Below, in pieces: positions 12,160-28,352 of a DNA stretch of 34,558 nt. The notes under the pieces are model-generated. The model saw only the letters and a list, made by a program, of their open reading frames with translations. It had not been told where the DNA came from and ran no database searches. The stretch spans positions 1 through 34,558 of the forward strand of contig VGZJ01000030.1 of assembly GCA_016872595.1 (NCBI GenBank), read 5' to 3'. Made by a program: the position numbers and the translations under genes. Every line of letters begins with the position of its first letter. Within the stretch, counting starts at the first letter, position 1. Origin of the DNA: Planctomycetota bacterium. Lineage in GTDB: Bacteria > Planctomycetota > Planctomycetia > Gemmatales > Gemmataceae.

Positions 12160-12172
12160 CCCGGTATAATCG
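12160..12172 (+). promoter_or_regulatory. Consensus -10 (TATAAT) upstream of WXG100 gene
   Basis: CCCGGTATAATCG is identical to the element at 7579-7591. TATAAT (12165-12170) ends 37 nt before the WXG100 start at 12208, a normal leader length. It implies that the WXG100/FtsK-like block has its own promoter. Confidence 0.55.
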
Positions 12173-12207: not shown

Positions 12208-12480
12208 ATGTCGCAGGCCATTGTGAACCCGGCGGAGGTGCGTCGGTTCGCCACCACCCTGAAGCGGTTCAACGCCGACCTGATGGCCGCGGTCGCCGGG
12301 CTACACGGCCAACTGGTCGCGCTCGGCGACAGTTGGCGCGACCACGAGCACGACCGCTTCCGGCAGGAGTTCGAGGCCACCATGCAGGTGCTGGAGCGGT
12401 TCCTGAACGTGTCCGACGAACACATCCCGTTCCTACTCCGCAAGGCCGAGCGGATCGAAGAGTATCTCTCCCAGCGGTAG
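12208..12480 (+). CDS. WXG100-like small helical protein
   Basis: The 90-residue, cysteine-free, all-helical protein fits the WXG100/ESAT-6 hairpin plan. Helix one runs about 8-38 and helix two about 46-85, joined by the turn LGDSWRDHEHDRF with Trp43 in W-R-D (a WxG-like turn with Asp in place of Gly). The C-terminal helix has the pattern ERFLNVSDEHIPFLLRKAERIEEYL. Known: WXG100 proteins are substrates and partners of type VII secretion and pair with an FtsK/SpoIIIE-type ATPase. Here such an ATPase lies three genes downstream. ATG 12208 is preceded by AGGAGA at 12195-12200. An upstream in-frame TTG (12184) is less likely. An inverted repeat follows the stop codon. Confidence 0.75.
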   Translation: MSQAIVNPAEVRRFATTLKRFNADLMAAVAGLHGQLVALGDSWRDHEHDRFRQEFEATMQVLERFLNVSDEHIPFLLRKAERIEEYLSQR

Positions 12481-12481
12481 T

Positions 12482-12550
12482 CGAAGGTCGTAAGGTCTAA
12501 GGTCGGAACGCCAACGACGGACTTTACGACTTTCGACCTTACGACCTTTG
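12482..12550. repeat. 24-bp imperfect inverted repeat between WXG100 and coiled-coil genes
   Basis: Arms 12482-12505 (beginning CGAAGGTCGTAAGGTC) and 12527-12550 (with GACCTTACGACCTT) pair at 21 of 24 positions around a 21-nt loop. The element fills almost the whole 83-nt gap. It may be a REP-type palindrome or an RNA processing/attenuation hairpin that sets the relative expression of the two genes. It is a different family from the C-rich elements. Confidence 0.65.
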
Positions 12551-12563
12551 ACCCCCGAATAGC

Positions 12564-13235
12564 ATGTCGGCCGACGTTCGGAGTATCGCCGCGGTTGTTA
12601 ATTGGCGGGCCGACCTCGCCAACTACGGCGACCTGCTCGCCGAGGCGATGGCCGGCGTCGATCTCGAAATCCGCCGCGCGCACGACTGGGTCGAAGAACA
12701 GCTCGCGCTGTGGCGGCGCGCCGTTCGCGGGTGCGAGGAAGACGTGGTGCGCGCGAAGGCGGAGCTGGCGCAGCGCAAGTTCCCGACGTGGGACGGGCGC
12801 GAGCCGGACTGCACCGTTCAGGAGAAGGCGCTGCGCCTCGCGAAGGCGAAGCTCGAACACGCCGAGGAGCAGGTGGAAACGTGCCGCCGCTGGCTCGGCC
12901 GGCTGCCGAAACTGGTGGACGAGCTGTTCACGGGCGCGTCGCGCCGCCTGCGCGGAATGCTCGAAGCGGACCTGCCCAACGCGCTCGCGGAGTTGGCCCG
13001 CCGGGTCGCCGCGCTGGAGAGCTACGCCGGGCTGAGGGCCGATTACGCGCCGCTGACGACGCGGGGGGACAACCCCACCCCCCAGCCCCCTCCCCGGGAC
13101 GGGGAGGGGGAGTCAGAGAAAGGCACCACAGGCTCAGCATCAGTGCGGGACGGTGAGAAGGAGAATGCCCCCCCTCCCCGCCCCGGGGAGGGGGCTGGGG
13201 GGTGGGGTTTGCCCGCGCCTTCGGAGTCACCCTAA
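12564..13235 (+). CDS. Coiled-coil protein of the WXG100/FtsK-like block
   Basis: The 223-residue protein has no signal peptide and no membrane segment. Residues about 10-150 are almost wholly helical and charged, with heptad-like runs (VDLEIRRAHDWVEEQLALW; KAKLEHAEEQVETCRRWL; LPNALAELARRVAALE). I do not recognise a named family. Residues about 170-215 are encoded by a C-rich palindromic element (13071-13209) and read as a Pro/Gly-rich tail. Only about eight codons follow before the stop. The TAA at 13233-13235 overlaps the next gene's ATG by one base, so the two are translationally coupled. Position suggests a structural or adaptor role with the WXG100 protein and the ATPase, but this is inference. 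Confidence 0.75.
   Translation: MSADVRSIAAVVNWRADLANYGDLLAEAMAGVDLEIRRAHDWVEEQLALWRRAVRGCEEDVVRAKAELAQRKFPTWDGREPDCTVQEKALRLAKAKLEHAEEQVETCRRWLGRLPKLVDELFTGASRRLRGMLEADLPNALAELARRVAALESYAGLRADYAPLTTRGDNPTPQPPPRDGEGESEKGTTGSASVRDGEKENAPPPRPGEGAGGWGLPAPSESP
13071..13209. repeat. C-rich palindromic element, copy A (inside the coiled-coil gene)
   Basis: Terminal arms 13071-13109 and 13171-13209 are inverted copies matching at 38 of 39 positions. Each arm is itself a hairpin (CCCCTCCCCGGGACGGGGAG). The total length is 139 bp with a unique centre. The element lies in frame in the coding region and introduces no stop. Its architecture (two inverted hairpins around a spacer) is like a REPIN. Related copies lie at 16755, 25324 and 27947. 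Confidence 0.85.
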
Positions 13236-13456
13236 TGCGGTTCGGCACCACGCGCAGCCAGATTTACGACGCCCAGAAGACCGCGCGCGCGAAGTGGGAC
13301 GTGTCGCAAGACGGCTGGGACGATGAGGTGCGCCGCGCGCACGGGGAAACGACCGTCGAACCGCTCGACGCGGCCGTGAGCGACGCGCTCCGCGCCATCG
13401 ACCAGTTGAGCGTGCTGTTTACTCAAGTCCGGCAAGAGTGCGAGTTCGGTTCGTAA
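13235..13456 (+). CDS. Small helical protein of the WXG100/FtsK-like block
   Basis: The 73-residue product starts at an ATG overlapping the previous stop (TAATG) and ends 29 nt before the ATPase start. It is predicted mostly helical: QIYDAQKTARAKWDVSQDGWDDEV, a short turn, then VEPLDAAVSDALRAIDQLSVLFTQVRQECEF. It contains two tryptophans (AKWDV, GWDDE), the second followed by acidic residues somewhat like the turn of the WXG100 protein. I do not recognise a family. It may be a second small secreted partner or a chaperone for the module. Tight coupling supports that it is a real gene. Confidence 0.7.
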   Translation: MRFGTTRSQIYDAQKTARAKWDVSQDGWDDEVRRAHGETTVEPLDAAVSDALRAIDQLSVLFTQVRQECEFGS

Positions 13457-13485
13457 CGTACTGCCTTCGCCCGGTGGGTTTCACC

Positions 13486-16400
13486 ATGTCCGACAACCTG
13501 TTCGACCGGCAGCGGGGCGCGCTCGCGCGCCTGACCGACGCGGCCCGCGCGCGCGCGGCGGCCGACGCCGACCTGACCGGCGCGTTCCGGACCGCCAGCG
13601 AGCGCGCCGAGCGCGACCTGAGCCGCGCGCGCAAGGCCCGCGCCGGCGGCACCGAGAGCGAAATCGGCGCGCTGGAGGCCGAGCACGCCGCGGCGCTGGC
13701 GCATGTTGCGGCCGACTACACCGCCGAACTGCTCGCCTCTGACCGCGAACACGGCGACCGCCGCAAGAGCACGACCGCGCGGTTCAACGCCGCGCAGCAG
13801 AAGGGCGACGACGACTACAAGGGCGACATCTGGAAGCACGATTCCGTGCTGGAAGCGGGCGAGAAGACCGCGAAGGAGCAGCTCGAAGCGCTCCAGCGCA
13901 AGGCCGCGGCCGGCGGCGAGCGCGCCGAGGCGCTGTGGCCCGACCTCGAACCGCTGCTGACGCGCGGGCGCGTGACGCGCGCCGAAGTCGAACACACCGG
14001 CGAACTGCCGCCGCCGACCGACGACGACCCCATCACCCGCATGAACAAGTGGCTGGGGCGCGCGGAAGACGGGATCGCGCAACTGGCCCGCCGCCGCTCG
14101 CCGGGCTGGGGCCACCCGGTGCGCCTGTTCGTGCTGATCGTGCTGTTCGGCGCGCTCAGCGCTGGTGTGTTCGTGCTCGTGGAGCGACCGAGGATCGGCG
14201 ATTTCGCAATCTCAGCTAGCTACTTCATCGCCGCGGCGGCCGGCCCCGTCGTCGGCGTTGCACTGTGGCTGCTGCTTCGCTGGCTCGGCCGACGAGTCAC
14301 GCGGCGCGAGGGGAAGCAGATCGCGATGCAGGCCGCCGAGAGCGCCCGCGCGGTGAAGCTCCTGTACGAGTACGCCACCGCCGAGTTCGTCGCGCAGATG
14401 GAGCGCCTGCGCGAGAAGCACCGGAAGGAGCGCGACAAGACCGACGCCTATTACAAGCCGCTGCTCGAAACGCAGCGGAAGCAGTACAACGCCGAGGTTC
14501 TGCGCATCGAGGCCGAACACGCGACCGCGACCGAGGTGATCCGCCGCACGCGCGGCAACCGCGAGCGCGGCGCGGACGACAAGCACCGCCGCGGTAAGGA
14601 CGAGGTCGCGGCGCGACTCGGCGGCGAGTTGAAGGCCGTGGAAGACGCGGTCGCGGAGCGCATGTCCGCGGCGACTGCCGCGCGCGATTCCGCTTGGAAT
14701 GCGATGGCGGAAGCGTGGAACGGCACGACCGCGGCGGTCGCGCGCACCTTCACCGAGCTGCGCGCCGAAGGCGCGACGGCTTTCCCCGCGTGGGGCGAAC
14801 TGACGACCGCGCGCCCGCTCGTGGAGCGCGTGCCCGCCGGTATCCGCTTCGGCGACCTGACCGCGGAACTGAGAGCGATCACCGACGCCGTACCCACCGA
14901 CCCGCGGCTCGCGCCGCCCCCGGAACTGGCCGGCCCGGTGCCGGCGTTCCTGCCATTCTCCGAGCGCTGCTCTGTGCTGCTCCGCTGCCGCGACGACGGC
15001 CGCGCCGCGGGCGTGGGCGCGCTGCAAGCGATGATGCTCCGGTTCCTCACCGGCCTGCCGCCGGGCAAGGTGCGGTTCACCATCGTCGACCCGGTCGGCC
15101 TCGGCGACAACTTCGCCGCGTTCATGCACCTCGCGGACTTCGACGAGAAGCTCGTCACGGCGAAAATCTGGACCGAGCCGCGCGACATCGAGGCCCGCCT
15201 CGCGGACCTTACCGACCACACCGCGAGCGTGATCCAGAAGTACCTGCGGAACCAGTACAAGAGCATAGAGGAGTACAACCGGGCCGCGGGCGAAGTGGCC
15301 GAGCCGTACCGCGTGCTCGTCGTCGCGAACTTCCCAAGTGGCTTCACACCCGAAGCGGCCAAGCGCCTCGTCAGCCTCGCGCAAAGCGGCCCGTCGTGCG
15401 GGGTGTGCGTGCTGGTCAGTGCCGACACGCGCGCCGCGATGCCGCGCGACTTCAACATCGCCGACCTCGAAGCGGTCAGCTACAGCGCCGCGTGGAAGGA
15501 AGGGCGATTCGTGCCGAAGGACGCGGTGCTGGCCGCGTTCCCACCGGCATTCGACCGGCCCCCGGAGCCGGCCACGGTCGCGGCACTCGTTCAGCGCGTC
15601 GGCAAGGCGAGCAAGGAAGCCGTGCGCGTGGAGGTGCCGTTCGACTACATCGCCCCAAAACCGGACGAGTTGTGGGCCGCGAGCGCCGCGAAGGGGTTCG
15701 AGGTGGCCGTGGGCCGCGCCGGGGCGACCCGCAAGCAGATGTTCGCGCTCGGGCGCGGCACGGCGCAGCACGCGGTCATCGCCGGCAAAACCGGATCCGG
15801 CAAATCGACGCTGCTGCACGCGCTCATCACCAACCTCGCACTCACGTACAGCCCGGACGAGGCCGAACTGTACCTGATCGACTTCAAGGAGGGCGTCGAG
15901 TTCCAGTGGTACGCGACGTACCGCTTGCCGCACGCGCGCGTGGTCGCGATCCAGAGCGAGCGCGAGTTCGGCCTGAGCGCGCTCCAACGGCTCGACGGCA
16001 TCCTGCGCGAGCGCGGCGAGAAGTTCCGCGACGCCGGGGTGAACGACCTCGCCGGCTATCGCGCCGCCAAACCCAACGAGAAAACGCCGCGCATCCTGCT
16101 GGTGATCGACGAGTTCCAAGCGTTCTTCACCGAAGACGACAAGCTCGCACAAGAGGCGTCGCTGCTGCTCGACCGATTGGTTCGGCAGGGCCGCGCGTTC
16201 GGGATGCACGTCCTGCTCGGCTCGCAAACGCTCGGCGGCGCGTACTCGCTCGCGCGCAGCACCATCGACCAGATGGCGGTGCGCGTCGCGCTCCAGTGCT
16301 CCGACGCCGACGCGCAGTTGATCCTGAGCAAGGACAACACCGCGGCCCGGTTGCTGTCGCGCCCCGGCGAGGCGATCTACAACGACCAGAACGGACTGAT

Positions 16401-17517
16401 CGAGGGCAACGACCCGTTCCAAGTGGTGTGGCTGACCGAAGAGCGCCGCGAGCAACTGCTGGAAGACCTGCACGCCCGCGCCGGCGACCGCTGGCCCGCG
16501 CCGCTGGTGTTCAGCGGCAACACGAGCGCGCCGCTGGAGAGCAACCGCGCGCTGGCGAAGCAACTCGCCTCACCTTCGCGCGTGAAGGTGCCGACCGCGT
16601 GGCTCGGCGACCCGGTGGCGATCAAGGAGCCGACCGCGGCGCTGTTCCGACCGCACGGCGGCGCGAACCTGCTGATGATCGGCCAGAGCGAGGACAGCGC
16701 ACGGGCGCTGTTCGTGGCCTCGCTGCTGGGGCTGGCGGCGCAACCGACGCGCTCAGAACCTAACCCCCCGGCCCCCTTCCCTGAGGGGGAAGGGGGGGAG
16801 GGCGCGATTGAAGATACGATCACTAACGCGGCGCGCGGACAATTCGGCGCGCGTACTCCCCCTTCCCTCTTAGGGAAGGGGGTTGGGGGGTTAGGTTCTG
16901 CGCTCCTCCTTCTCGACGGCACGCCCGACGACGCCGACAGCGCCGACGCGCTGCGCGCGTTCGCGGAGCAGGTGCCGGGCGCGCGCGCGGTGGCCCGCGC
17001 CGAACTGCCGGCCGCGCTCGCGGAGGTGGCCGCCGAAATCGAGCGCCGGCAAAAGGGGGAAGCCGAGCGCGCGCCGCGGTTCCTGTTCATCTTCGGCGTG
17101 CATCGGTTCCGCGAGCTGCGCAAAGCCGACGACGACTTCAGCTTCGGGCGGCGCGGCGAGCGCGAGCCGTCGCCCGCGGAGCGCCTCGCCGCCATCTTGA
17201 AGGACGGCCCGCTCGCCGGGGTACACGTGGTCGCGTGGTGCGATTCGCTCGTGAACCTGAACCGGGTGTTCGACCGGCCGCTGCTGCGCGAGTTCGCGAT
17301 GCGCGTGCTGTTCCAGATGAGTGCGACCGATTCGAGCACGCTGATGGACGCGCCGACCGCGTCGAAGCTGGGCCGGCACCGGGCACTGTTCCTGCACGAG
17401 GAGCAGGAGCGCGCGGAGAAGTTCCGCCCCTACGGGCTGCCGTCGGCCGCGTGGCTGGACGGGGCGTGCGCGGCCCTCCGCGCGCGCGGCGCGCCCGCCG
17501 TGGGAGCGGGCGTGTAG
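13486..17517 (+). CDS. Membrane-anchored FtsK/SpoIIIE (EccC-like) ATPase
   Basis: The 1343-residue protein has a layout like the type VII ATPases EccC/EssC. Residues 1-200 are a charged coiled coil. Two membrane helices lie at about 212-232 and 239-266. A second coiled coil (about 275-440) follows. Then come three ATPase-like modules. The first (about 485-690) lacks a Walker A motif. The second is canonical, with GKTGSGKST at 767-775, DEF at 875-877 in ILLVIDEF, and GSQTLGGAYSLARSTIDQM. The third (from about 1065) has GQSEDSARALF in place of Walker A and is degenerate. A C-rich palindromic element encodes residues about 1091-1138 inside the third module. The start at 13486 follows the small gene by 29 nt with a weak ribosome site. 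It probably powers export of the WXG100-like protein or DNA/protein translocation; export is the better guess from context. Confidence 0.85.
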   Translation: MSDNLFDRQRGALARLTDAARARAAADADLTGAFRTASERAERDLSRARKARAGGTESEIGALEAEHAAALAHVAADYTAELLASDREHGDRRKSTTARFNAAQQKGDDDYKGDIWKHDSVLEAGEKTAKEQLEALQRKAAAGGERAEALWPDLEPLLTRGRVTRAEVEHTGELPPPTDDDPITRMNKWLGRAEDGIAQLARRRSPGWGHPVRLFVLIVLFGALSAGVFVLVERPRIGDFAISASYFIAAAAGPVVGVALWLLLRWLGRRVTRREGKQIAMQAAESARAVKLLYEYATAEFVAQMERLREKHRKERDKTDAYYKPLLETQRKQYNAEVLRIEAEHATATEVIRRTRGNRERGADDKHRRGKDEVAARLGGELKAVEDAVAERMSAATAARDSAWNAMAEAWNGTTAAVARTFTELRAEGATAFPAWGELTTARPLVERVPAGIRFGDLTAELRAITDAVPTDPRLAPPPELAGPVPAFLPFSERCSVLLRCRDDGRAAGVGALQAMMLRFLTGLPPGKVRFTIVDPVGLGDNFAAFMHLADFDEKLVTAKIWTEPRDIEARLADLTDHTASVIQKYLRNQYKSIEEYNRAAGEVAEPYRVLVVANFPSGFTPEAAKRLVSLAQSGPSCGVCVLVSADTRAAMPRDFNIADLEAVSYSAAWKEGRFVPKDAVLAAFPPAFDRPPEPATVAALVQRVGKASKEAVRVEVPFDYIAPKPDELWAASAAKGFEVAVGRAGATRKQMFALGRGTAQHAVIAGKTGSGKSTLLHALITNLALTYSPDEAELYLIDFKEGVEFQWYATYRLPHARVVAIQSEREFGLSALQRLDGILRERGEKFRDAGVNDLAGYRAAKPNEKTPRILLVIDEFQAFFTEDDKLAQEASLLLDRLVRQGRAFGMHVLLGSQTLGGAYSLARSTIDQMAVRVALQCSDADAQLILSKDNTAARLLSRPGEAIYNDQNGLIEGNDPFQVVWLTEERREQLLEDLHARAGDRWPAPLVFSGNTSAPLESNRALAKQLASPSRVKVPTAWLGDPVAIKEPTAALFRPHGGANLLMIGQSEDSARALFVASLLGLAAQPTRSEPNPPAPFPEGEGGEGAIEDTITNAARGQFGARTPPSLLGKGVGGLGSALLLLDGTPDDADSADALRAFAEQVPGARAVARAELPAALAEVAAEIERRQKGEAERAPRFLFIFGVHRFRELRKADDDFSFGRRGEREPSPAERLAAILKDGPLAGVHVVAWCDSLVNLNRVFDRPLLREFAMRVLFQMSATDSSTLMDAPTASKLGRHRALFLHEEQERAEKFRPYGLPSAAWLDGACAALRARGAPAVGAGV
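16755..16899. repeat. C-rich palindromic element, copy B (inside the FtsK-like gene)
   Basis: Inverted arms 16755-16796 and 16858-16899 (outer ends AGAACCTAACCCCCC) enclose a 61-nt centre. Each arm contains a CCCCCTTCCCT-AGGGAAGGGGG hairpin. It is read in frame as [15 protein letters not shown], then TPPSLLGKGVGGLG, without a stop. The element splits the third ATPase-like module between LLGLAAQP and ALLLLDGT. Confidence 0.88.
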
Positions 17518-25323: not shown

Positions 25324-25413
25324 AACCTAACCCCCCGGCCCCCTTCCCTGAAGGGAAGGGGGCGCTACACGTTGCCGAATTCCCTTCAGGGAAAGGGGCC
25401 GGGGGGTTAGGTT
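25324..25413. repeat. C-rich palindromic element, copy C (panD leader)
   Basis: Outer arms starting AACCTAACCCCCCGGCCCC (25324-25362; inverted at 25380-25413) enclose only a 17-nt centre. The total length is 90 bp, the shortest of the four copies. It ends 19 nt before the panD start. Confidence 0.85.
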
Positions 25414-27035: not shown

Positions 27036-28352
27036 CAACAGCAGCAGAGCCGGGGCGTGCAGGTAGCGCATCACGGCGTTGCCGAACACGACGCCGATCG
27101 CGCCGTCCACGACGCGGTGGTCGAACGAGAACGACAGGTACACCATGTCCGCGGGCTTCAGCGCGCCGTGGGCGTCGTACACCGGGCGTTTCACCACCTT
27201 GCCCACGCCCATGATCCCGACCTCCGGGTGGTTGATGATGGGCGTCGAGATGAGGCCGCCGAGGTTGCCGATGGACGTGACCGTGAACGTGCCGCCGCGC
27301 AGGTCGTCGATCTTGATCTTCCCGGCCTTCGCGTCGTTGCTCAGGCGCTCGATGTCGGTGGCGATGGTCGCCACGTCCTTCTTGTCCGCGTCCTTCACCA
27401 CGGGCACCATCAGCCCGTTGTGCGCGGCCACCGCGACGCCCACGTTGTACTTGTCGTGCAGAACCACTTCGTTCGCGGCCTCGTCGAACGAGCTGTTCAC
27501 GATGGGCACTTCCTTGAGCGCCCGCGCGACGGCCTTCACCATGAACGACAGGTACGTGAGCTTTACGCCGGACTTCGCGAGCGCGTCGCGCAGTTGGGCG
27601 CGGAGCCGCACGAGGTCCGAGAGGTCGCACTCGTCGATGTAGGAGTAGTGGGGGATGTGCCGCTTCGATTCGACCATGTGCTCCGCGATCTTGCGGCGCA
27701 GACCGATGAGCTTCATGCGCGTGCCGGCGGTGCCGAAGTCGAGCTTCGGGGCGTCCGGCGCGGCGGGCGCGGGCCGCGCGCCGTTGGCGGGCTTGGGCGC
27801 GAGGTACGGGGCGAGGTCGTCGAGCAGGATGCGGCCGTGCGGCCCGCTGCCGCGGACGTGGGCCAGATCGACGCCGAACTTGCGCGCCAACATGCGCACC
27901 GACGGGGCCGCGGGGGGCAGGGGCGCGCCGTGGCCGTTGGGGGAAGAACCTACCCCCCCGGCCCCCTTCCCTAAGAGGGAAGGGGGGGCCAGAGCCGTCG
28001 CGCTCTCGTGTGGGCCGTTTGTGCGCTGGGGCGAGCCAGCCTCTTGCTCCCCCGTCCCTCTTAGGGAAGGGGGCCGGGGGGGTAGGTTGCCTTCGCTGGG
28101 GGCAGGTTGCGCCACCTCGCCCACGGCGTTATAGCTGAGGAACGTCTGCCCCACCTTCACCTTCGTGCCCTCTGTGGCCGCGAGCGCGGTGACGGTGCCC
28201 GCGAACGGCGACGGCACCTCCATGTTCGCCTTGTCGGACATGACTTCGGCGAGGCTCTGCCCGCGCGCGACCGCGTCGCCCGGCCGCACCAGCCAGCGCA
28301 CCAACTCGACCTCGATCAGCCCTTCGCCCACCGGCGGAAGAGGAAAGTCCAT
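27018..28352 (-). CDS. 2-oxo acid dehydrogenase E2 (dihydrolipoamide acyltransferase)
   Basis: E2 carries the acyl group on lipoate and passes it to CoA; it is the core of the pyruvate or branched-chain 2-oxo acid dehydrogenase complex. The 444-residue product has a lipoyl domain at about 2-78 (lipoyl Lys41 in MSDKANMEVPSPFAGTV). A linker contains a C-rich palindromic element (residues about 89-135). Then comes a peripheral subunit-binding domain (SVRMLARKFGVDLAHVRGSGPHGRILLDDL) and the catalytic domain with the active site FSFDHRVVDGAIG (HxxxDG). I chose ATG 28352, where the lipoyl domain begins. The stop codon lies in another palindrome. No E3 gene is in the window. Pyruvate versus branched-chain specificity cannot be decided. 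Confidence 0.92.
   Translation of the reverse strand: MDFPLPPVGEGLIEVELVRWLVRPGDAVARGQSLAEVMSDKANMEVPSPFAGTVTALAATEGTKVKVGQTFLSYNAVGEVAQPAPSEGNLPPRPPSLRGTGEQEAGSPQRTNGPHESATALAPPSLLGKGAGGVGSSPNGHGAPLPPAAPSVRMLARKFGVDLAHVRGSGPHGRILLDDLAPYLAPKPANGARPAPAAPDAPKLDFGTAGTRMKLIGLRRKIAEHMVESKRHIPHYSYIDECDLSDLVRLRAQLRDALAKSGVKLTYLSFMVKAVARALKEVPIVNSSFDEAANEVVLHDKYNVGVAVAAHNGLMVPVVKDADKKDVATIATDIERLSNDAKAGKIKIDDLRGGTFTVTSIGNLGGLISTPIINHPEVGIMGVGKVVKRPVYDAHGALKPADMVYLSFSFDHRVVDGAIGVVFGNAVMRYLHAPALLLLGERGA
27947..28088. repeat. C-rich palindromic element, copy D (E2 linker)
   Basis: Arms 27947-27986 and 28049-28088 match at 39 of 40 positions in inverted orientation (outer end AACCTACCCCCCCGGCCCCC). The total is 142 bp. 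On the minus strand it is read in frame as LPPRPPSLRGTGEQEAG, then APPSLLGKGAGGVG, between the lipoyl and subunit-binding domains. Confidence 0.9.

What the first reader, a model, noticed from the sequence alone, without database searches (positions are those of the whole stretch)
12208..17517. Minimal WXG100 plus FtsK/EccC-like ATPase module in a planctomycete
Four tightly packed genes encode a WXG100-like helical hairpin (W-R-D turn, 90 aa), a coiled-coil protein, a 73-aa helical protein overlapping its neighbour by 1 bp, and a 1343-aa ATPase with two TM helices and three ATPase-like modules, only the middle one with an intact Walker A/B. This mirrors the EccC/EssC plan of type VII secretion, yet no EccB, EccD, EccE, EsaA or mycosin is present. 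The ATPase also has extra long coiled coils on both sides of its TM hairpin. It may be a compact type VII-like export system suited to a diderm planctomycete. Its own TATAAT promoter supports a stand-alone unit.
Basis: partly seen in the sequence, partly recalled or inferred. Interest (0 to 1): 0.8.

Follow-up and report, generated by a model that had tools for sequence, protein, structure and literature searches.

The report
Four-gene type-VII-like module in planctomycetes
A planctomycete carries a compact, conserved set of four genes (a membrane-anchored motor protein and three small hairpin-shaped partners) that resembles the core of a known protein-export machine and is kept as one functional set, although what it exports, if anything, is untested.

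Summary
Window 12208-17517 encodes a WXG100 protein (W-R-D turn), a long helical hairpin, a 73-aa WXG100-like protein and a membrane-anchored, three-domain EccC/EssC-like ATPase with one intact P-loop. It is one functional set: of 392 Planctomycetota genomes, 58 of the 64 with any of the four genes have all four and 328 have none, and in 11 genomes C1 and the ATPase lie truly apart. No YukD or YukC match reaches its cut-off in 13 module-bearing genomes. The ATPase tree largely follows taxonomy. It is not categorically new: a 2012 paper's table footnote, naming planctomycetes, describes solo WXG with a three-domain ATPase of which only the middle is active, and the CoCoNuT paper of 2024 describes a similar cassette. 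What looks new is the planctomycete variant: a hydrophobic anchor in 42 of 42 ATPases examined (two or more segments in 36), no toxin domain recognised in the window's C2, vertical inheritance, and a fixed gene set kept even when scattered. Best reading: a minimal type-VII-like inner-membrane translocase whose passengers are its own hairpin proteins. Export is inferred, not shown.

The parts
12165..12170 (+). TATAAT hexamer, probable -10 element of the operon (no recognisable -35)
   Evidence: TATAAT upstream of 18 of 89 distinct C1 homologues against a shuffled mean of 1.5, maximum 7; sigma-70 scan found no promoter
12208..12480 (+). C1: 90-aa WXG100 protein with W-R-D turn
   Evidence: PF06013 30.5 bits over cut-off; profile best PDB match 3fx7/2gts (HP0062 of H. 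pylori) E=5.6e-12, then EsxB E=4.5e-9; W-x-D in 24 of 24, W-x-G in 0 of 24
12564..13235 (+). C2: 223-aa long helical hairpin; no domain recognised in the window protein
   Evidence: AF2 of the first 165 aa: helices 8-72 and 84-157, pLDDT 91; no Pfam match at E<=0.1; orthologue in 60 of 392 phylum genomes
13235..13456 (+). C3: 73-aa second WXG100-like protein with W-x-D, overlapping C2 by 1 bp
   Evidence: PF06013 matched at E<=0.1 by 8 of 24 orthologues, best 1.5e-6, not by the window protein itself; HHalign with C1 E=2.5e-5, probability 75, Trp turns aligned; C2 stop and C3 start overlap by 1, 4 or 8 nt in 40 of 53 named loci
13486..17517 (+). C0: 1343-aa membrane-anchored EccC/EssC-like ATPase
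   Evidence: PF01580; Foldseek best PDB match EccC 4nh0 E=1.6e-31; VIA 4nh0 Z 27.7, 728 residues, rmsd 13.2, model 1-881
14125..14259 (+). Transmembrane hairpin of the ATPase (aa 214-232 and 240-258)
   Evidence: hydropathy only; at least one such segment in 42 of 42 planctomycete ATPases examined, two or more in 36
14803..15624 (+). First ATPase-like domain, no P-loop
   Evidence: AF2 model residues 1-274; model 1-881 aligned with EccC 425-1315; a single P-loop per protein in 42 of 42
15784..15807 (+). Walker A of the central domain (aa 767-774)
   Evidence: G767 and T769-S774 invariant in 42 sequences; only P-loop
16108..16113 (+). Walker B Asp-Glu of the central domain (aa 875-876)
   Evidence: invariant in 42 sequences
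16510..17490 (+). Third ATPase-like domain (about aa 1009-1335), no P-loop
   Evidence: model 274-881 aligns with EccC/EssC ATPases 2 and 3
16753..16893 (+). In-frame palindromic repeat insertion in the third domain (aa 1090-1136)
   Evidence: model residues 651-697 have pLDDT under 50; its columns hold 30 or more residues in only 3 of 42 rows, the window included; inverted arms 16728-16806 and 16848-16926

Best explanation
A minimal, membrane-anchored type-VII-like translocase. Shown by computation: four genes form one conserved set; the ATPase has the three-module EccC/EssC cytoplasmic plan behind a hydrophobic hairpin, with a P-loop only in the central module; C1 is a WXG100 protein, C3 a second WXG100-like protein, C2 a double-length helical hairpin. 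Inferred: the ATPase forms a hexamer in the inner membrane; C1 and C3 pair as an Esx-like dimer; C2, which by gene order sits where a Helicobacter relative has a nuclease, is passenger or scaffold; ATP hydrolysis in the central ring drives the C1/C3/C2 hairpins across the inner membrane into the periplasm. With essentially one copy of each gene per genome and vertical inheritance, a housekeeping or envelope function is more likely than toxin delivery.
For: Co-occurrence: ATPase 62, C1 60, C2 60, C3 62 of 392 genomes; all four in 58, any in 64, none in 328; ATPase-C1 Fisher p=3e-65, not corrected for relatedness. Structural match to the EccC chain over three modules. C1 profile matches HP0062, EsxB and EsxA structures. 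tblastn of C1 against 72,556 plasmids finds 3 records, each also among the top five ATPase records. Helicobacter relative: WHH/colicin DNase beside a SUKH-type gene between its WXG100 gene and its ATPase gene. Hydrophobic anchor in 42 of 42. On the ATPase tree all groups together need 14 changes, the minimum.
Against: No secretion data. C1 lacks a C-terminal YxxxD/E signal (0 of 24). No YukD or YukC over cut-off, and no outer-membrane step is known. The first module has no P-loop, although ATPase1 is the active one in EccC (recalled). By fold the central domain is at least as close to the FtsK DNA motor (Z 31.7) as to EccC/EssC. The window's own C3 has no WXG100 match, and the C3 profile's PDB matches are weak (best 0.083; EsxA 0.34). 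C2's fold search is unspecific (0 matches at E<=0.001). Outside the phylum the C2 model matches only the Rhodococcus C2-slot protein (E=1.1e-6), and the C3 model none of the 73-77-aa proteins of Rhodococcus, Caballeronia and Helicobacter, so C2 and C3 equivalence there rests on gene order.
Confidence: 0.55

Rival explanations
1. The ATPase is a membrane-anchored FtsK-like DNA pump or a signalling/defence machine, and the WXG100-like hairpins are cytoplasmic adaptors or regulators that are never exported.
For: FtsK motor is the top VIA match, on the central domain, Z 31.7; PADLOC SspH and mad8 match the motor domain; plasmid relatives sit beside TerD, VWA, PP2C, kinase and CARF genes; the CoCoNuT homologues lack TM helices.
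Against: Three tandem modules aligned with EccC; no FtsK gamma domain among the Pfam matches at E<=1; a separate, stronger FtsK-type gene on another contig; WXG100 partners; hydrophobic anchor in 42 of 42 examined. TerD, VWA, PP2C or kinase genes were not looked for systematically in planctomycete flanks.
Confidence: 0.22
2. C1-C3 are structural or gating parts, and the real cargo is encoded elsewhere in the genome.
For: C1, C2 and C3 are essentially single-copy, unlike diversifying substrates; they are kept even when scattered.
Against: One WXG100 match in the own genome and one in 69 of the 71 family genomes with a match, so no cargo family of that kind is visible; no candidate cargo was identified.
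Confidence: 0.15
3. A domesticated remnant of a toxin-immunity (polymorphic toxin) export cassette that has lost its toxins.
For: Nuclease and SUKH-type genes in the Helicobacter relative; C2 of four planctomycete genomes ends in an Imm33-like domain above cut-off.
Against: All four genes are kept together across the phylum and the catalytic residues are invariant in 42 ATPases, which is not decay.
Confidence: 0.08

Closest known systems
'Solo WXG' with a YueA-like ATPase with three HerA/FtsK domains, only the middle one active (PMC3482391, Biol Direct 2012, Zhang et al., author name recalled; passages seen)
   Same: Solo WXG100 protein, three-domain ATPase, only the middle one active; planctomycetes named
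   Different: Described there as apparently mobile versions of T7SS; here the tree largely follows taxonomy, a fixed four-gene set is defined and a TM anchor is found
EssC-like cassette of extended Type III-A CoCoNuTs (PMC11090510, eLife 2024; section 10 read, passages elsewhere)
   Same: Three ATPase domains with only the central one predicted active, two WXG100 proteins, a coiled-coil protein
   Different: That ATPase has no TM helices and the coiled-coil protein carries a nuclease, between VWA genes; here a TM anchor, no nuclease recognised, a stand-alone module
H. pylori HP0062/HP0066 (PMC4978471 and PMC3397514; passages seen)
   Same: WRD-turn hairpin clustered with an FtsK-like ATPase in a diderm, called a minimal set of T7SS; HP0062 is the best PDB match of C1
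   Different: Its cluster also includes an HNH/Endo VII nuclease and a DnaK homologue; the HP0066 sequence was not compared here
Canonical T7SS, T7SSa-j (PMC11217815; abstract and passages seen)
   Same: Membrane-bound EccC/EssC-type ATPase plus WXG100 protein
   Different: Four NTPase domains there, three recognised here; no YukD or YukC over cut-off; no YxxxD/E tail
T. curvata EccC (4nh0)
   Same: Three-ATPase cytoplasmic fold in the same order
   Different: The profile's P-loop region matches all three EccC domains; here only the middle domain has a P-loop

Membership tests
WXG100/ESAT-6 superfamily (for C1) | Profile match over the curated cut-off | tested here: met
   PF06013 30.5 vs 27.3 bits; NCBIfam TIGR03930, 23.5 bits, is below its 44.85 cut-off
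WXG100/ESAT-6 superfamily (for C1) | Tryptophan turn motif between two helices (W-x-G, or the W-R-D variant of HP0062) | tested here: met
   W-x-D in 24 of 24, strict W-x-G in 0 of 24; HP0062 has WRD; C1 itself was not modelled
WXG100/ESAT-6 superfamily (for C3) | Profile match over the curated cut-off | tested here: inconclusive
   8 of 24 orthologues match at E<=0.1, best 1.5e-6; the window protein does not; scores per member were not shown
Canonical type VII secretion system | Membrane-bound EccC/EssC-type ATPase | tested here: met
   hydrophobic hairpin and EccC fold; NCBIfam EccCa 104.8 bits is far below its equivalog cut-off of 509
Canonical type VII secretion system | Four NTPase domains after the TM helices | tested here: inconclusive
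   three domains in the model from aa 440; aa 1-439 were not modelled
Canonical type VII secretion system | YukD-like ubiquitin protein (most subtypes) | tested here: not met
   0 of 13 genomes over cut-off, one weak match in G087, B. subtilis control rings
Canonical type VII secretion system | YukC/EssB (T7SSb) | tested here: not met
   0 of 13 genomes; control rings in 3 of 14, over cut-off in 1
Canonical type VII secretion system | EccB (T7SSa) | tested here: inconclusive
   0 of 13 genomes but no control rang
Canonical type VII secretion system | EccE, EsaA, mycosin | not tested
   no search run
Canonical type VII secretion system | YxxxD/E C-terminal signal on the Esx protein (recalled as a T7SS hallmark) | tested here: not met
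   0 of 24 in the last 25 residues of C1
Canonical type VII secretion system | ATP-dependent export of the WXG100 protein | not testable with these tools
   needs experiment
Solo WXG / three-domain ATPase group (PMC3482391) | Three HerA/FtsK domains with only the middle one active | tested here: met
   one P-loop in 42 of 42; three-domain model; activity itself not tested
Solo WXG / three-domain ATPase group (PMC3482391) | Solo WXG100 protein with the ATPase | tested here: met
CoCoNuT Type III-A EssC cassette | ATPase without TM helices | tested here: not met
   hydrophobic segment in 42 of 42, two or more in 36
CoCoNuT Type III-A EssC cassette | Coiled-coil protein fused to a nuclease | tested here: not met
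   no Pfam domain in window C2 and none of the shown matches of 22 C2s is a nuclease toxin except weak Exonuc_VII_L, E>=0.0033; in 133 C2 frames, duplicates included, the median tail beyond the model is 3 residues, tails over 100 aa in 7 frames of 4 genomes, Imm33-like
CoCoNuT Type III-A EssC cassette | Long N-terminal coiled coil on the ATPase | tested here: inconclusive
   profile positions 261-412 match helical apolipoproteins; no coiled-coil predictor run
FtsK/SpoIIIE DNA translocase | C-terminal FtsK gamma DNA-binding domain | tested here: not met
   not among the 20 Pfam families at E<=1

The most novel reading that the evidence does not exclude
A vertically inherited, toxin-free, four-protein type-VII-like translocase of Planctomycetota that works across a diderm inner membrane with a TM-anchored ATPase driven by its central ring: the smallest type-VII-like translocase, put to a housekeeping use.
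Probability: 0.35. Interest if true: 0.78.

Novelty: new variant of a known kind. Interest (0 to 1): 0.52.

Why it matters
What minimum a type VII translocase needs is hard to test in systems that all have extra membrane components. Here four genes are kept as a set across a phylum, even when scattered, without YukD or YukC partners over cut-off. If it exports, it is a minimal type-VII-like translocase in a diderm; if it does not, WXG100 plus an EccC-type ATPase cannot by itself be read as secretion.

Tried and rejected
Defence system: PADLOC matches are to the motor domain only. Phage origin: 56 pattern matches in viral contigs, none a relative. Canonical T7SS: YukD and YukC not found over cut-off. 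True FtsK: no gamma domain, and the genome has a separate, stronger FtsK match. The C2 fold search gave unspecific helical matches, 0 at E<=0.001. The register against EccC is not settled: structure aligns the modules in order with ATPases 1-3, while sequence puts the central module slightly closer to ATPase1 (64.5 vs 50.0 bits). In one search the third model round drew C1 proteins into the C3 and C2 models; I rebuilt cleaned models and used those afterwards. Co-occurrence counts come from P0002 and alignments A1, A3 and A2.

Limits. A1-A3 were seeded mostly from members next to the ATPase (row L084 is not), so distant ATPase-less homologues could be missed. The Pfam WXG100 search in 95 family genomes, independent of this seeding, gives 71 against 76 with ATPase; comparing the two lists, the only WXG100 match without ATPase is G079, below cut-off. 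In one search the C1 and C2 sets were derived from the ATPase set by the differences. In one search the ATPase positions of split genes are those of one piece (G396, G365, G373). Apart from the window's own genome, no member of its family is in the listed rows of the phylum draw. The Fisher test ignores relatedness. Family f90 alone needs 3 changes on the tree, which is a quick one with long outgroup branches and a long-branch warning. In the named set, 46 loci have 4 kb or more upstream of the ATPase frame; 9 of these show no C1 there. The hydropathy cut-off was 1.7 and 1.6. Verrucomicrobia, cyanobacteria and Bacteroidetes relatives named in PMC3482391 were not reached. Paper searches. PMC4631099 holds both 'WXG100' and 'Planctomycetes' and was not opened; other listed papers not named above were seen as listings only. 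Anantharaman 2012 is not held and is known here only through papers that cite it.
Full report
Observation. The four ORFs are real and packed as stated. C1 (12208-12480) matches Pfam WXG100 above the curated score. C0 (13486-17517) matches FtsK_SpoIIIE, and among PDB sequences EccC of T. curvata best. C2 and C3 of the window have no Pfam match over cut-off.

Conservation as a unit. In the window's own genome there is one WXG100 match; FtsK_SpoIIIE matches over cut-off lie on contig C51 and at this ATPase. In the family, 76 of 95 genomes carry the ATPase and 71 of 95 a WXG100 match, 68 over cut-off. I read 20 stretches from 19 family genomes: in 18 of 19 the three small genes lie upstream of the ATPase, and in the other (G001) C1-C2-C3 and the ATPase are on different contigs. 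Flanking genes are little shared: in a simple clustering of 21 loci, window included, the ATPase is in 20, the three small genes in 10-15 and the next commonest clusters in 7. In 46 of 46 named loci where all three small genes were found the order is C1-C2-C3, and C2 stop and C3 start overlap by 1, 4 or 8 nt in 40 of 53.

Phylum-wide co-occurrence. A draw of 392 Planctomycetota genomes gave ATPase in 62, C1 in 60, C2 in 60, C3 in 62. All four are in 58, at least one in 64, none in 328. The six exceptions are G136 (a weak C3 match only), G201, G313, G390, G430 and G471. G313, G390 and G430 are 61-80% complete and G201 86%; G471, 98% complete, lacks a C1 match without such an excuse.

Linkage in that draw. 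C1 lies within 8 kb of the ATPase in 41 of 59 genomes, far off on the same contig in 6 and on another contig in 12. Of those 12, five (G218, G233, G373, G374, G442) have a piece of the ATPase beside C1 at a contig end, and in G170 and G365 the contig ends just after C3, so contig breaks explain seven. The other five (G181, G231, G288, G310, G459) and the six far ones make 11 genomes where C1 and ATPase are truly apart. In G199 the four genes are at four separate places of one chromosome. Loss of linkage with retention of the set is strong evidence for a common function; it does not say which.

What the parts are. C1: the family profile's best solved structures are HP0062 of Helicobacter pylori (E=5.6e-12), EsxB (4.5e-9) and EsxA (1.2e-5); W-x-D is present in 24 of 24, as WRD is in HP0062. 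C3: 8 of 24 orthologues match WXG100 at E<=0.1, best 1.5e-6, and profile comparison with C1 aligns the Trp turns (E=2.5e-5, probability 75); PDB matches are weak. C2: its first 165 residues are predicted as one hairpin of two helices of 65 and 74 residues. C0: the aa 440-1343 model (pLDDT 83) matches the EccC chain best by Foldseek and aligns with it over 728 residues (rmsd 13.2); its second and third modules align with EssC/EccC ATPases 2 and 3, while the single best VIA rows are FtsK motors on the central module. All 42 planctomycete ATPases examined have exactly one P-loop, with invariant Walker residues, and at least one hydrophobic segment at the same place, 36 two or more.

Relatives elsewhere. 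tblastn of the ATPase against plasmids found relatives in Rhodococcus, Caballeronia, Deinococcus and Helicobacter. Each has a protein beside it that matches the C1 model (E=7.5e-11 to 4e-28 in a set of 24 proteins); only the Caballeronia one passes the Pfam WXG100 cut-off, the others match below it. tblastn of C1 alone found three plasmids, the same as three of those. The C2 model matches the Rhodococcus C2-slot protein (1.1e-6) but not those of the other three, and the C3 model matches none of the 73-77-aa proteins of Rhodococcus, Caballeronia and Helicobacter; there the correspondence is by gene order only. These four ATPases show no clear TM hairpin (none, or one borderline segment), and the Deinococcus one lacks the first glycine of the P-loop. 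The Helicobacter C2-slot protein carries WHH/colicin DNase domains beside a SUKH-type gene; no Pfam domain was found in the Rhodococcus, Caballeronia and Deinococcus C2-slot proteins. In planctomycetes C2 usually ends soon after the hairpin; four genomes have a C-terminal Imm33-like domain over cut-off.

Mode of inheritance. On the ATPase tree the labelled groups together need the fewest changes possible (14; shuffled mean 31.5), with the caveats of a quick tree and of family f90, which alone needs 3. This differs from the mobile-cassette description in the literature.

Known or new. [quoted passage not shown] The H. pylori pan-genome paper calls WxG plus FtsK a minimal set of T7SS, citing Anantharaman 2012. 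The CoCoNuT paper describes the same ATPase plan with two WXG100 proteins but without TM helices and with a nuclease. The finding is therefore a variant of a known kind. New here, as far as my searches reach, are the TM anchor, the defined four-gene set, the absence of a recognised toxin domain in most members, vertical inheritance and co-occurrence despite dispersal.

Mechanism. I commit to a minimal inner-membrane translocase with its own hairpin proteins as passengers or scaffold (0.55). The parts, their co-occurrence and the fold are computed results; the hexamer, C1-C3 pairing, export and the lack of a known outer-membrane step are inference.

Noticed in passing
window 16728-16926 and 13057-13223; further motif sites near 25339 and 27962-28064: Palindromic G/C-rich repeat elements inserted in frame in the ATPase (disordered in the model, mostly absent in relatives) and in the 3' end of the C2 gene, with similar motifs elsewhere in the window.
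   Followed up: partly
window 12475-12557: Inverted repeat with 34-nt arms (82% complementary) in the C1-C2 spacer.
   Followed up: no
L124:7222-8295, L120:6820-7947, L129:7108-8256, L221:3642-4703: C2 proteins of four planctomycete genomes end in an Imm33-like domain (PF24719) above its cut-off.
   Followed up: partly
L256:6015-7426: Helicobacter plasmid relative has a WHH/colicin DNase protein and a SUKH-type gene between its WXG100 gene and its ATPase gene.
   Followed up: partly
L257:7267-7695: Deinococcus relative has a separate 142-aa protein with a hydrophobic C-terminal stretch directly upstream of an ATPase without a TM segment whose P-loop lacks the first glycine.
   Followed up: no
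L254:10450-11394: The Rhodococcus C2-slot protein is 314 aa, with a long C-terminal region beyond the part that matches the C2 model; no Pfam family found.
   Followed up: partly
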